Assembly: GCF_029395435.1 (NCBI RefSeq)
Contig: NZ_CP113915.1
Location: forward strand, 1,612,001 to 1,676,000
From: Bifidobacterium sp. ESL0790
GTDB taxonomy: Bacteria; Actinomycetota; Actinomycetes; Actinomycetales; Bifidobacteriaceae
Direction: 5' to 3'
Length of the DNA stretch: 64,000 nt
In this document: piece after piece, positions 38,100 to 44,586 of the stretch
How positions within the stretch are numbered: the stretch's first letter is position 1
Layout: each line of letters begins with the position of its first letter
The notes under the pieces: generated by a model
The model's database searches: none
What the model saw: the letters and a program-made list of their open reading frames with translations, nothing else
What the model was told of the DNA's origin: nothing
Program-made: the position numbers and the translations under genes

Positions 38100-38433
38100 A
38101 GTGGCGGCTGGCGCTGGGCTTTGCATAGACGGGCGTCTTGCGGCAATAATATTTCGGCGCCGCGGAATTTTCGTGCTTACAAGGCGTAAGACACGCCGGG
38201 GCGGGATGTAGAAACGCCTTCGCAACATGCATTTTAGGTCATACGAATCGCTTGAATCTGGCTCTTTCGTCGGACGAATTATCGCTCAAACGCAAGATTA
38301 ATTAGACTGTGGTCACTCGGACGTTATAATATTGACCCATCTTCGGCAATGCGACACATCCGCGCGCCCTCCTTGGGTTGCGCCCGGAAGCGTGGTCGTG
38401 GAGCCGGTAACGGTGTCTTGAAGGGGTTATCCG
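38100..38433. other. Upstream region and 5' leader of surface-protein gene 1
   Basis: It contains a palindrome TTCGTC-G-GACGAA (38266-38278), the promoter at 38302-38330, and a roughly 95-base 5' leader. From about 38280 onward it is almost identical to the region before gene 2. No other gene is supported. Confidence 0.6.
38302..38330 (+). promoter_or_regulatory. Sigma70-type promoter of surface-protein gene 1
   Basis: TTAGAC (38302-38307) and TATAAT (38325-38330) are separated by exactly 17 bases. The same promoter is conserved upstream of gene 2. Transcription should start near 38337. Confidence 0.8.
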
Positions 38434-41102
38434 ATGTTGAACGTGGTGGTGTCCGTCCTCGCGTGCGCGGCGATGCTCGCGCCCTTGACCGGCAACCTAT
38501 CGAATGTGGACAACCAAAAAAGCACCGAGATCGACCCCCCCCCGCAGTCCTAACGACCAATTCTTATCACAACTCACCAACTAAGAGTAATCATCTCTCA
38601 CTTCCCTCTTTAACGTCATTTTCATTGTTGGAACATGACGCATCGTCGCGCCCGTCCGCAAACTCACGTCCCGACCGCAAATCCGATTCGAAGCAACACA
38701 GTTCCACACGTTCCGCCTCCCGTAGTTCCACCCGTTCCAACCGTCAAGGTACGCGTTCGGACTCAATCCATGAGGCCTCGTTGACAGGTACCTCGAAAAA
38801 GACCCAAGCCAGCAAGACTCCGTCCGTAATCCACCAGGCGGATCCGGCCAGACAGCCGCAGGTGGGCCCGCAGAGCTCGTGCACGCCAACTACCGAGAGG
38901 TGGCAGGGTAGCGACCACGGCGGCCCCACCACCGATTACATGAACTGGACCATCGACGCCGACTGCAACATGACGATAACCGACGGGATACTCAGCTATG
39001 ACTATTTTTACGCTTCTTCGCCTTTCCCCTGGTCTCAAGCCAGTACTTATGGGACTAAAGTCGTCTCGCTGACCATCAGTAGTTCACTGCAGCTTACGAG
39101 CGGAGTAACCGACATACAATACTGGTTCCAATATATGACTGAAATGAAGTCTTTTTCGGCACCTAGTTTGAATACCTTGGGTATATCCCACATGCAAGGC
39201 ATATTCAACCAATGCCATAAGCTGAAGAATGTCGATCTGAGTAGCTGGGACACAAGAAACCTGCAAGACGTAAGTTATATGTTCAACTGCTGTTACGCCC
39301 TGGTCTCAGTAAACCTCAACAGCTGGGACACCAGCAAAATCACTAAAACATACGCGATGTTCGACGACGCCTCCTCGCTCGTCAGCCTCGATCTGAGCGG
39401 CTGGAACACCAGCAGCCTCACCAACGCAACCAACATGTTCGATGGAGCATCCTCGCTCACCACCCTCGACCTAAGCGGCTGGACGACGCCGCAGCTAACC
39501 AGCACGCACGGGATGTTCAGTGGTGCGGAATCACTCGTCTCCCTTGACATTAGCGGCTGGGACACCAGCAACGTCACCGACATGCGCTACATGTTCGAAC
39601 ACACGTATCTCAAAAGGCTGCGCCTGGGCGCGAACACCGCGAATCTGGCATCGGAGGTACAGGCGGAGGCGTTCCCCGCAAGCCCCGCACAAACCATCTA
39701 CGTCGATGGGGCCTTCGAAACTACCACGCTTCCGGACAACTCGACCGTGTACGCGCTGAAACACTTCCGGTCCAATGCGGTGCCAGCTGGCTCCTACTCG
39801 ACCGCGGTGACCAAGCCCACTTGGTTCGGCAACGCCAAACGAAGCATCCAGTACAACCACGACGACGGAACCGTGGGCGACTACCCCCGCCCCTGCCTCG
39901 ACTGGGACGGCACGGGAACATGCACCATAGCCGGAGACACCGGCCTGACCGGATCCGCCACCCGCCGCCTCAACTGGATCGACGCCAACAACAACGCCTA
40001 CATCCCCGGCGACACACTCACCCACGACGGAACCCTGACCGTCACGCCCCAATGGAACCCCATACCCGTCCCCACGGTCGACTCGGTTACTTGGCCGCAT
40101 GATTTGGGCGGAGGGTCACGTAGCATCCGCGCCACGGGCACCGCCAGCCTCCTGCGCCACGACGACACCATCCCCGTGCGCTACACCTGGACCGACGCGA
40201 CCGGCACCGAACAACACAAGGACACCACCGCCACCGTCAACGGCGGCAACTGGACCGCCGACCTTAACGACGCGCCCAGCTTCGCCAGCATCGCGGCCGC
40301 CGATCTGAAAGGCACCGGCACAAAGATTACCGTCACTGCGCAGGTCAAGGACGCCGGCGGCCCCACCGGCCTCTGGTCGGACGGCAAGGACGGTTATGCG
40401 GACATGGTCGCGCCGGAACTGTCAAGCTCTTACGCCAACCGCGACGGCGCGGGCGGCATCGCCATGAGCTCCAACCGAAGCCAGGCCGTCGCCGAGCCGG
40501 GCGACACGGTCACCATCAGCTGGCTCGACAACACCGACACCCCCATCAGCTGGCCCGACGGAGGAGGCACCACCACGACGCTCACCGTCACCGCCGGCCC
40601 CGGAGGCCGGTTCACCGCCACCAAGCCCCTAGCCGTCACCGGCGCCAAAAAAGTCCAATACGTCCTCAGCGACGGCATCAACACCAGCGAGCCGGTCACC
40701 AAGAAGATCACCGACCCCATCACCGCCATCCCCCTCACCGGCGGCCCGGCCCAAGTCTGGTCGAAGCTCCTGCTCATCCTGCTAGCCGTGATGCTCATCG
40801 GAGCCACCACCCTGCTGCGCAACCGCCGCAACCACGCCCTCCGCCTCGTCACCACCAACGGCCACACCATGCCAATTTTCCATAACCTCACCACCAACGG
40901 CAAAACCACGAGTGGAACACCGACGCGCAACCATCACGCCAACCGCCATACCATGAATCACCACGCCGCGACCCATCAAGCCAACGACCACCGCGCCGCA
41001 GTCATGCGGGCCAGCCTCTCGCAGGCCTCCCCCACCCCATCGCACGTCAAGCTCCGCCACGCCGCCAAATACGCCGCCCACGGCCCCCGCCACACCAAGT
41101 AA
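38434..41102 (+). CDS. Sortase-anchored BspA-like LRR surface protein, phase-variable, OFF in this sequence (frameshift at C9 tract)
   Basis: Translation should start at ATG 38434 (GAAGGGG upstream; an in-frame TGA at 38419-38421 excludes earlier starts), giving a hydrophobic signal peptide (MLNVVVSVLACAAML...). A run of nine C (38535-38543) then leads to a stop at TAA. With ten C the frame continues to 41102 as an 889-aa protein: Ser/Arg/Thr-rich stalk (~45-150), six BspA/DUF285-type leucine-rich repeats (SLDLSGWNTSSLTNATNMF-like, ~240-396), Ig-like region with DDTIPVRYTWTDATGTEQ, sorting motif IPLTGG near 766, a membrane helix and an RNRR stop-transfer. About 95 His/Asn/Thr-rich residues follow, longer than usual after a sorting signal. 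Adhesion is the likely role; OFF state and phase variation are inferred from the tract. Confidence 0.75.
38535..38543 (+). repeat. Poly-C tract (C9), putative phase-variation switch, gene 1
   Basis: Nine C between the signal-peptide frame and the body of the protein. C9 closes the frame at the next TAA; C10 or C7 would open it. Confidence 0.8.
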
Positions 41103-41456: not shown

Positions 41457-42295
41457 AAGAGCCTCCCATTCTTGTTATTTTCAGCCGGCCTTATGGTCCA
41501 AGCCGACCGCACGCACGTTTCGGCCTTCCGTCTCAAGGGAAGCCCACCGCATGCGCGCGGCACGACAAACACTATCGGTTTGTACAAGAAAAGCCAAATG
41601 AAAACCTAAAGATTCAATAAAATTGGACATTTCTTCAGGATATTTCTTTAGGACATTTGAAGATTCTCACGCAATATGATAAGTTCAGTTTGTCGGTCGA
41701 AGTGGTCTCACTTCGAGACAGTTGCCGGGTCATTTAACGCTTTGTCTCGTTGGACTTCACCGATAGGGCGACTATTCTTACGTCCTTCTCGTTATTTGGT
41801 TTGTGTGGGCCGCTGGTTCCGACCAGTGGTCCACATGAGCTTTCTTTTCAGCTAGCCATTGGCTCATCGCCCCTTCATGATTCCCGACGCCCCAGATATT
41901 CGGCGAGACAATGCCACGCCAACCGCTTGGGCAAAATATGACGCGCAAGCCATAAATCGAAAAGCCGTGCAGCGAAGCCGGCGGTGACATCGAAGAAAAG
42001 ACAAGTGCTTTGCGGAAACAATATTGTCGGATCCACAAAACATGAGACACACCAGGCGAACAGGCCGGGCGCGACACGCTGCCACAAGATTTTAAGTCAT
42101 ACGAATCGGCCAGATTCGGCGGTTTCGTCGGACGAATCATCACCGGAACGCAAGATTAATTAGACTGTGGTCACTCGGACGTTATAATATTGACCCATCT
42201 TTGGCAATGCGATACGTCACGCGCGTGGCTCCTCTTGGGCTGCGCCCGGAGGCGTGGTCGCGGGGCTTGGAACGGTGTCTTGAAGGGGTTATCCG
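41457..42295. other. Spacer and duplicated 5' region before surface-protein gene 2
   Basis: Bases 41600-41780 are AT-rich with no supported gene. An open frame on the minus strand across 41778-42143 has no ribosome-binding site or family match. From about 42095 the sequence parallels the region before gene 1, including the palindrome TTCGTC-G-GACGAA (42124-42136), promoter and leader. Confidence 0.5.
42160..42188 (+). promoter_or_regulatory. Sigma70-type promoter of surface-protein gene 2
   Basis: TTAGAC (42160-42165) and TATAAT (42183-42188) with 17-base spacing, identical to the promoter of gene 1 including the spacer. Confidence 0.8.
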
Positions 42296-44586
42296 ATGTT
42301 GAACGTGGTGGTGTCCGTCCTCGCGTGCGCGGCGATGCTCGCGCCCTTAACAGGCAACCTATCGAATGTGGACAACCAAAAAAGCACCGAGATCGACCCC
42401 CCCCCGCAGTCCTAACGACCAATTCTTATCACAACTCACCAACCCAAACTAATCACTTCTCACTTTCATCTTTACCGTCACTTTCATCGTTATTGAAATA
42501 CGACAACCCGTCGCGACCATCCGTAAACTCACGTCGCGACCACAAAACCGATTCGAAGCATCGCAGCCCCGCACCTTCAGATTCTCGTGACTCCACACGT
42601 TCCAGCAGTCAAGGCACACGTTCAAATTCAATCCATAAGGCCTCGTTCACAGGCACCTCGAAGAAGATGCAGGCAGGCAAGACCCCGTCCGTAATCCATC
42701 AAGCGGATCCGGCCGGACAGCCGCAGGTGGGCCCGCAAAGCTCGTGCACACCGACGACGGCGACCTGGCAGGGCAGCACGTACGGCGGCCCCGCCACGGA
42801 CCATTTCGATTGGACCATCGACTCCGCCTGCAACATGACCATCACCGGAGGAATACTCAGCCAGAACTACAGCGCCTACTATTTCCCATGGAGAGGCTAC
42901 GACTACAGCGATAAAGTCGTCTCGCTGACCGTCGACAGCCTGACCCTTCAGCCCACAGTCACCAGCATGGCTAGCTGGTTCGGGAGCATGACCGCGCTTA
43001 CGTCTTTCTCCGCGCCGAACCTCGATACCAGCCACATCACCGACATGACGTACGTGTTCCTCTACACCCAGTCGCTCGCAACCCTTGACCTGAGCGGCTG
43101 GGACACCAGCAGTGTCACCGCTACGACCTTCATGTTCAACGGCACGCATATCAAACGCCTGCGTCTAGGGGCGGGCACCTCCAAGCTGGCACCCTTAGTG
43201 CAGTCAAGCGTGTTCCCCGCCAGCCCCGCACAGACCATCTACATGGAGGGCGCCGTCGAATCGACCTCGCTGCCGGACGGTTCGACCGTGTACACGCCGA
43301 AGCACTTCCAATCCAACGCCACGCCCACAGGCGCGTACTCCACCGCGGTGACCCAGCCCACCTGGTTCGGCACACCACAATCCCAACTGATCTACGCGCA
43401 CGACGACGGGACCAAGGGCGACTACCCCCACCCCTGCCTCAGCTGGACCGACACGGACACCTGCACCATCGCAGGAGACACCGGCCTGACCGGATCCGCC
43501 ACCCGCCGCCTCAACTGGATCGACGCCAACCACAACGCCTACATCCCCGGCGACACCCTCACCCACACCGGCAATTTGACCATCACGCCCCAATGGAACC
43601 CCATACCCGTGCCCGACGTCAACTCGGTCACCTGGCCACACGACCTCGGCGGCGGATCCAAAAGCATACGGGCCACGGGCACCGCCAGCCTCCTGCGCCA
43701 CGACGACACCATCCACGTACGATTTACTTGGACCGACGCGACGGGAACAGAACAACACCAGAACGTAGTCGCCACCATCAATGGGAGCAACTGGGCCGCC
43801 GACCTTACCAACGCGCCCAGCTTCGCCAGCATCGCCGCCGCCGACCAGATCGGCACCGGCACGAAGGTGACCGTCACAGCGCAGGTGAAGGATGCCGGCG
43901 GCCCCACCGGCCTCTGGTCGGATGGCAAGGACGGCAACGCCGACATGGTTCCACCCTCCATCATCGACATGTACGCCGCACCCAGCAGCGCGGGCGGCGT
44001 GGTCATGAGCTCCGACCGCTTGCAAGCCGTCGCCGAGCCGGGCGACACGGTGACCATCAGCTGGCTCGACAACACCGACACCCCCATCAGCTGGCCAGAC
44101 GGTGGAAGCACCACCACGACGCTCACCGTGACTGCCGGACCCGGCGGCCACTTCAGCGCCACCAAGCCAATCGCCGTCACCGGAGCCAAGAAAGTCCAAT
44201 ACGTGCTGAGCGACGGCATCAACACCAGCGAGCCGGTCACCAAGAAGATCACCGACCCCATCACCGCGATACCTTTCACCGGCGGCCCGGCTGAACTGTG
44301 GTCCAAGCTCCTGCTCATCCTCATGGCCGCGATGTTCATCGGCATCACCACCACGTTGCGCAACCGCCGCAACCACGGCCTCCGCCTGATCACCACCAAC
44401 GGCCACACCATGCCGGTTCCCCACGGCTTCACCACCGTCAACCACCGCATCGTCAATCACCAAGCCACCAAGCACCACACCATGGCCACGCAGGCCAGCC
44501 CCTCGCCGGCCTCCAACAGGCCGTCGCACGCCAAGCTCCACCACGCCGCCAAACACACCGCCCATGGCCCCCGCCACACCAAATAA
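42296..44586 (+). CDS. Second sortase-anchored BspA-like LRR surface protein, phase-variable, OFF in this sequence
   Basis: A paralogue of the gene at 38434 with the same layout: ATG 42296 after GAAGGGG, the same signal peptide, a C9 tract at 42397-42405 and an immediate stop. C10 would give a 763-aa protein. It carries a Ser/Thr/Arg-rich stalk, only two complete leucine-rich repeats (TLDLSGWDTSSVTATTFMF and the preceding unit), the same Ig-like domains, sorting motif IPFTGG near residue 659, a membrane helix, RNRR, and an approximately 75-residue His-rich tail. The C-terminal half is close to copy 1, while the stalk and repeat region have diverged. The two leader differences from copy 1 (Leu and Thr codons) are silent in the signal-peptide frame. 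Confidence 0.75.
42397..42405 (+). repeat. Poly-C tract (C9), putative phase-variation switch, gene 2
   Basis: Same position and length as in gene 1. One added C joins the signal peptide to the surface-protein frame. Confidence 0.8.

What the first reader, a model, noticed from the sequence alone, without database searches (positions are those of the whole stretch)
38434..41102. Surface-protein gene 1 looks phase-variable through a C9 tract and is OFF here
A consensus promoter, ribosome-binding site and ATG (38434) open a signal-peptide frame that hits nine C at 38535-38543 and stops right after. Adding one C joins it in frame to an uninterrupted 2.5-kb frame encoding a stalk, leucine-rich repeats, Ig-like domains, IPLTGG and a membrane anchor. 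The long frame itself has no usable start or signal peptide. Homopolymer slippage controlling surface proteins is established in several pathogens; here it would control a bifidobacterial adhesin-like protein. Transcriptional slippage on C9 is an alternative that gives a low constant level.
Basis: partly seen in the sequence, partly recalled or inferred. Interest (0 to 1): 0.88.

Follow-up and report, generated by a model that had tools for sequence, protein, structure and literature searches.

The report
Poly-C switch on bifidobacterial surface proteins
A surface-protein gene carries a run of nine Cs that puts its secretion signal and the rest of the protein out of step by one letter, and 19 sister genes in the same genome carry the same kind of run, almost all switched off in the same way, which looks like a large slip-controlled repertoire of surface proteins.

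Summary
ATG 38434 opens a 39-codon signal-peptide frame through C9 (38535-38543) and stops 7 nt later. One extra nucleotide in the tract gives one 889-aa frame. The genome has about 40 PARCEL/DUF285 surface-protein genes; of 38 examined, 20 carry a C/G8-10 tract just after the signal peptide and 18 do not. Every tractless gene reads in frame. Of the 20, 18 need exactly +1 nt, one needs +2, and one is in frame. Three other species of the genus follow the same 'one short' rule at tract lengths 7-10. Long frames are intact and under purifying selection (dN/dS 0.33-0.64). Best reading: replication-slippage phase variation with a strongly OFF-biased default, as shown for B. breve pili; a shared, conserved 5' cassette may add to the uniformity. 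Switching itself is not shown. The uniform phase also fits -1 ribosomal frameshifting on C_CCC_CCC or, less likely, a systematic one-base undercall. Ig-like domains were not confirmed. Sister systems are known (bifidobacterial pili, Gardnerella, mycoplasma PARCEL genes), so this is a new variant of a known kind.

The parts
38303..38330 (+). promoter-like TAGACT-N16-TATAAT, also present in gene 2
   Evidence: (10 of 12 consensus positions; chance level alone)
38421..38426 (+). Shine-Dalgarno-like AAGGGG, 7 nt before the ATG
   Evidence: equivalent purine-rich sites before most tract genes
38434..38553 (+). leader ORF (39 codons plus TAA): signal-peptide-like start ending right after the C tract
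   Evidence: a tractless paralog at G000:C1:2041278 has a similar leader (MLVKMAVSALLCAATL...) in frame with its body
38535..38543 (+). C9 tract; C10 would join leader and body
38544..41102 (+). body frame of surface protein 1, out of frame with the leader at C9
   Evidence: dN/dS 0.33-0.42 against six family-A paralogs
39309..39605 (+). DUF285/PARCEL leucine-rich repeat region
   Evidence: PF03382 119.6 bits (cut-off 25); TIGR02167 110.9 bits (cut-off 30)
40728..40745 (+). IPLTGG, LPXTG-like anchor motif
   Evidence: read from the sequence
40761..40835 (+). hydrophobic membrane segment followed by RNRRN
   Evidence: read from the sequence
42161..42188 (+). promoter-like site of gene 2
42296..42415 (+). 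leader ORF of tandem paralog (gene 2), same 39-aa product
42397..42405 (+). C9 tract of gene 2, same phase as gene 1
42406..44586 (+). body frame of surface protein 2 (DUF285/PARCEL), out of frame with its leader

Best explanation
This is one of about 20 slip-controlled surface-protein genes in a bifidobacterial genome. The promoter, start site and signal peptide are always present. The C9 tract at the signal-peptide/body junction sets the reading frame. At C9 translation stops 7 nt after the tract, so no surface protein is made, and the untranslated, C-rich, G-poor downstream RNA may be cut short by Rho-type polarity (inferred). When replication slippage makes the tract one C longer, the signal peptide is joined to an 850-residue PARCEL/DUF285 body with an LPXTG-like anchor and the protein can be exported. 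The default is strongly OFF: nearly every copy sits one nucleotide short of ON, so a few cells with one or a few members ON would arise in a mostly bald population. Shown: the frames, the tract, the family-wide phase, selection on the bodies, and length differences between paralogs. Inferred: slippage in living cells, the rates, export and adhesion.
For: Layout. Family: 20 of 38 examined PARCEL-type genes have a C/G8-10 tract behind the signal peptide; the 18 tractless ones open in frame with a signal-like start (signal judged by eye). 18 of 20 need +1, one +2, one in frame. Long frames are intact in all but one of the 20 (a mosaic copy) and dN/dS is 0.33-0.64 between paralogs, so the bodies have been translated over evolutionary time. 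Tract lengths differ between near relatives: own C9 versus C8 (299756/605489), G088 C8 versus C7, G089 C10 versus C7. Tracts are C in some leader families and G in others, as in contingency loci. Precedent: B. breve pilus genes have the same split layout, and DNA tract-length mixtures were measured directly (PMC9187656). Gardnerella surface-gene tracts vary in vitro (PMC11287997), and Gardnerella-sized draft genomes in the same genus show mixed phases.
Against: No reads, no second strain and no expression data: switching is not observed. The phase is too uniform for free switching (18/20, P 2e-7 by gene; 8/9 by leader family, P 0.001, assuming equal phases), so a strong OFF bias, cassette homogenisation or another mechanism is needed. 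C8 and C7 tracts should slip little. In B. breve pili ON needs one base fewer, here one more.
Confidence: 0.62

Rival explanations
1. Programmed recoding: the OFF-looking phase is the designed state, and a small fixed share of ribosomes slips -1 on C_CCC_CCC (or RNA polymerase adds one C), giving constant low expression of all members.
For: The shift needed is exactly -1 in 47 of 52 tract genes over four species; any C9 contains an in-frame C_CCC_CCC; C_CCC_CCC is listed among the most efficient -1 motifs in E. coli (PMC4066793); the zero-frame stop follows 7-16 nt after the tract in all 18 own genes of this phase; family-A DNA around the tract is 0.91-0.99 identical while the bodies diverge.
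Against: No stable RNA structure directly after the tract (z 0.30 and 0.17; -1.98 for one offset window of gene 1); without stimulators heptamers slip at most about ten fold above a background near 0.05%; three genes sit in the +2 phase and one C7 gene lacks the full heptamer in frame; tracts are G as well as C, and G_GG.G_GG.U was the weakest motif tested; RNA-polymerase slippage is established on A/T runs (title of reference 2 in PMC1088944).
Confidence: 0.17
2. Sequencing artefact: the assembly undercalls long G/C runs by one, so the genes are really in frame and expressed.
For: All four assemblies with the uniform phase are single contigs, and a uniform -1 error would give exactly 'one short' at any length; no run of 11 or more G/C was found in this genome, while other genus genomes have longer runs; Penno et al. 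warn that annotated tract lengths can be wrong.
Against: Frame check over 515 kb: 112 of 130 simulated single deletions detected, no unexplained frame change in the real sequence; run-length distribution up to 7 is like that of other genus genomes; the error would have to hit C7, C8, C9 and C10 alike in four assemblies; paralogs with C9 and C8 are distinguished in the same assembly.
Confidence: 0.12
3. Retired genes: the tract genes were switched off by slippage and are now dying pseudogenes or silent recombination donors.
For: 18 of 20 are OFF in one phase; one (1402935) is a mosaic broken further downstream; conserved blocks and repeats could feed recombination into expressed copies.
Against: 19 of 20 long frames are intact, 600-1430 codons, and dN/dS is 0.33-0.64; promoter-like site, SD and leader are kept.
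Confidence: 0.09

Closest known systems
Bifidobacterium breve UCC2003 sortase-dependent pilus genes bbr_0113 and bbr_1889 (Penno et al. 2022, PMC9187656)
   Same: Signal-peptide frame and LPXTG-type body frame split by a homopolymeric G tract near the 5' end; annotated state is OFF; one-nucleotide change fuses them; likely polarity in the OFF state.
   Different: Two pilus operons with their own sortase and G10-11 tracts, ON by one base fewer; here about 20 PARCEL surface genes, mostly C9, ON by one base more, and no length mixture has been measured.
Homopolymer-tract surface genes of Gardnerella (PMC11287997)
   Same: About 20 G/C tracts of 8 or more per genome, many at surface proteins with LPXTG sites; length variation shown in vitro for one GA-module gene.
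   Different: Different protein families (Rib, GA, FIVAR); tract genes in Gardnerella-sized draft genomes of this genus are in mixed phases.
PARCEL lipoproteins of Mycoplasma agalactiae and M. capricolum (Roske et al. 2010, PMC2996958)
   Same: PARCEL-repeat surface proteins; two M. [quoted passage not shown]
   Different: Mycoplasma lipoproteins; in the passages read, no family-wide one-phase set; bifidobacteria not mentioned in the text.
-1 ribosomal frameshifting heptamers (Sharma et al. 2014, PMC4066793)
   Same: The tract contains an in-frame C_CCC_CCC and the needed shift is -1.
   Different: No stimulatory structure found; some members are in the other phase.

Membership tests
Contingency locus (slipped-strand phase variation) | Homopolymer of about 8 or more that sets the reading frame of a surface gene | tested here: met
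   C9 between signal peptide and body; +1 joins, +0 and +2 stop early
Contingency locus (slipped-strand phase variation) | Tract length differs between closely related copies | tested here: met
   Paralog pairs C9/C8, C8/C7, C10/C7
Contingency locus (slipped-strand phase variation) | Tract length differs between strains at this same locus | not testable with these tools
   Leader found in none of the other 111 genus genomes except one weak 36-nt match; only one genome per species held
Contingency locus (slipped-strand phase variation) | Length mixture within a clonal population and reversible ON/OFF expression | not testable with these tools
   No reads or expression data
Contingency locus (slipped-strand phase variation) | Members of the set found in mixed phases (usual, not strictly defining) | tested here: not met
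   18 of 20 in one phase here, 47 of 52 over four species; hence 'works like', with an OFF bias
PARCEL / DUF285 (BspA-like) surface proteins | PF03382 and TIGR02167 above curated cut-offs | tested here: met
   119.6 versus 25 bits and 110.9 versus 30 bits; gene 2 32.1 and 31.9 bits
Sortase-anchored wall protein | Signal peptide, LPXTG-like motif, membrane segment, positive tail | tested here: inconclusive
   IPLTGG, hydrophobic segment and RNRRN are present by eye, but about 90 further residues follow and the leader has no K/R near its start; processing not tested
-1 programmed ribosomal frameshift | Slippery heptamer in the zero frame with the product in the -1 frame | tested here: met
   gaC_CCC_CCC_CCg; -1 gives the body
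-1 programmed ribosomal frameshift | Stimulatory downstream structure | tested here: not met
   z 0.30 and 0.17 directly after the tract in genes 1 and 2

The most novel reading that the evidence does not exclude
The 'one short' phase is a designed default: a 5' cassette (promoter, signal peptide, C/G tract, early stop) used by dozens of surface-protein genes in several bifidobacterial species keeps the whole repertoire OFF but always one slip, in DNA or in decoding, from ON, so each cell shows none or very few of about 20 adhesin-like proteins.
Probability: 0.25. Interest if true: 0.72.

Novelty: new variant of a known kind. Interest (0 to 1): 0.57.

Why it matters
If right, a presumably commensal bifidobacterium keeps a silent reserve of about 20 switchable surface proteins beside some 18 constitutive ones, on the scale of pathogen contingency sets. 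That would bear on gut colonisation, strain differences and reproducibility of cultures, and such genes are likely to be filed as pseudogenes. The uniform 'one short' phase is also a clean test case for telling DNA slippage from ribosomal recoding on poly-C.

Tried and rejected
Random free switching in the assembled state: rejected by the phase counts. Gross assembly error: no support from the frame check, run-length spectrum or C7/C8 cases. Lipoprotein reading of the leader (conserved Cys 11): rejected by judgement, the Cys is too early and the leader lacks a positive start. Ig-like domains: no Pfam hit even at E 1, AlphaFold model of the region useless (pLDDT 40). No PDB relative by sequence. 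Leader DNA in viral contigs: none. The genome-contig search gave only a distant Muribaculaceae protein. A draft genome (G056) shares a 29-nt tract motif but in a dispersed non-coding-looking repeat, not a surface gene.

Full report
Observation. Window 38434-38553 encodes MLNVVVSVLACAAMLAPLTGNLSNVDNQKSTEIDPPPQS and stops 7 nt after a C9 tract at 38535-38543. The body frame 38349-41102 is open. One more nucleotide in the tract gives a single 889-residue product, two more give 50 residues. The count of C9 runs in the window is not unusual (2 against 0.95 expected); their position is. Gene 2, 3.9 kb downstream, repeats the whole layout with a C9 at 42397-42405.

The wider set. The window lies in a single-contig genome of 2,254,804 bases. 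It holds 112 matches to the body, from about 40 genes. Of 38 genes examined, 18 have no tract and start in frame with a signal-like sequence (judged by eye), and 20 have a C or G tract of 8-10 behind the signal peptide (two further genes were not covered). Tract sizes: C9 or G9 in 18, one C10, one C8. The C10 is a flanking A-to-C change and keeps the phase. Genome-wide there are 12 runs of exactly 7 G/C, 10 of 8, 24 of 9, one of 10 and none longer, so nine is in excess; 18 of the 24 are at surface genes, and the other six were in apparently intergenic DNA.

Phase. In 18 of 20 own genes the leader needs exactly +1; 605489 (C8; its close paralog 299756 is C9) needs +2; 1752550 (G9) is in frame and encodes 734 residues. 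In three other genus genomes the same holds at other lengths: G085 9 of 9 (C10, G10), G089 8 of 9 (C10, G10, C7; one G11 in frame), G088 12 of 14 (C9, C8; two C7 need +2). Together 47 need +1, 3 need +2, 2 are in frame. G085 and G089 share orthologs, and paralogs share ancestry, so gene counts overstate independence; by leader family 8 of 9 share the phase (P 0.001 against equal phases, my grouping).

Are the bodies alive? dN/dS between family-A and family-B paralogs is 0.33-0.64, and long frames are intact in 19 of 20. One, 1402935, is a mosaic broken downstream. Family-A DNA from -90 to +30 around the tract is 0.91-0.99 identical while flanking blocks fall to about 0.65-0.85 and bodies have dS 0.48-0.74. 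So the leader-tract cassette is either homogenised by conversion or conserved at the nucleotide level; either would help keep one phase within the family, but not across unrelated leader families.

Could it be an artefact? A codon-usage frame scan found 112 of 130 simulated 1-nt deletions, and in 515 kb of real sequence only ordinary gene junctions (the stricter no-start filter found 59 of 130). Short-run spectra resemble other genus genomes. Runs of 8 and 7 obey or break the rule by whole steps in the same assemblies. I judge a blanket undercall unlikely but not excluded, because I cannot see reads and do not know the platform.

Mechanism. B. breve UCC2003 pilus genes have the same split layout. 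There tract lengths were measured in DNA (37% G11 and 59% G12 at bbr_0113; 93% G10 and 6.5% G9 at bbr_1889), in-frame strains made pili, and transcription fell after the leader stop (PMC9187656). By analogy C9 here would slip rarely, contraction would favour OFF, and ON cells would be a minority; this is inference. It accounts for few ON loci but does not by itself explain why OFF is nearly always one short and hardly ever two. Selection for loci that remain one slip from ON, plus cassette homogenisation, would. The rival, -1 ribosomal slippage on C_CCC_CCC, explains the phase directly, and that heptamer is efficient in E. coli (PMC4066793), but no downstream structure is predicted, some members are in the +2 phase, and G tracts are used too.

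Product. PF03382 DUF285 and TIGR02167 PARCEL repeats are firm. IPLTGG, a hydrophobic segment and RNRRN are followed by an unusual His/Arg-rich tail. Pfam and an AlphaFold attempt did not support Ig-like domains. Adhesion is a guess from family resemblance.

What is new. Slip-controlled surface genes in this genus are known (pili; Gardnerella), and poly-G in PARCEL genes was proposed in mycoplasmas. I found no paper in the held library on PARCEL genes with tracts in bifidobacteria (open-access papers only). The size of the set and the one-short rule appear new.

Noticed in passing
G000:C1:1402935-1405814 (L089): A tract-bearing PARCEL gene is broken inside its repeat region by what looks like a fused internal duplication rather than a homopolymer slip.
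   Followed up: partly
G000:C1:1752550 (L095): A PARCEL surface gene with a G9 tract that is in frame (734 aa): the only tract gene of the 20 that is ON in the assembly.
   Followed up: partly
window 40821-41099 and paralogs: About 90 His/Arg/Ser-rich residues follow the membrane segment of family-A proteins, unlike the short positive tail of ordinary sortase substrates.
   Followed up: no
family-A cassette, window 38434-38575 and 42296-42440: Leader plus tract is nearly identical between paralogs whose bodies have dS near 0.6, suggesting local gene conversion or nucleotide-level selection.
   Followed up: partly
window 38544-38743: The 200 nt after the tract hold 73 C and 29 G; similar C excess after most tracts, which could act as a Rho-type site when untranslated.
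   Followed up: no
G056 contigs C2, C4, C9, C16, C34 (L334, L336, L338, L345, L348): A dispersed repeat with a near-identical C9 context (gaaaactaCCCCCCCCCgcgacagcgag) in at least five places, not at surface genes.
   Followed up: partly
G085 L208-L210, G089 L199, L200, L205: Genes with G10/G11 splitting the signal peptide itself (between charged start and hydrophobic core), like B. breve pilus genes; one is in frame.
   Followed up: partly
G000:C1:399314, 792557, 907394, 947143, 1511420, 126935: Six C9/G9 runs in apparently intergenic DNA, possible promoter-spacing switches.
   Followed up: no
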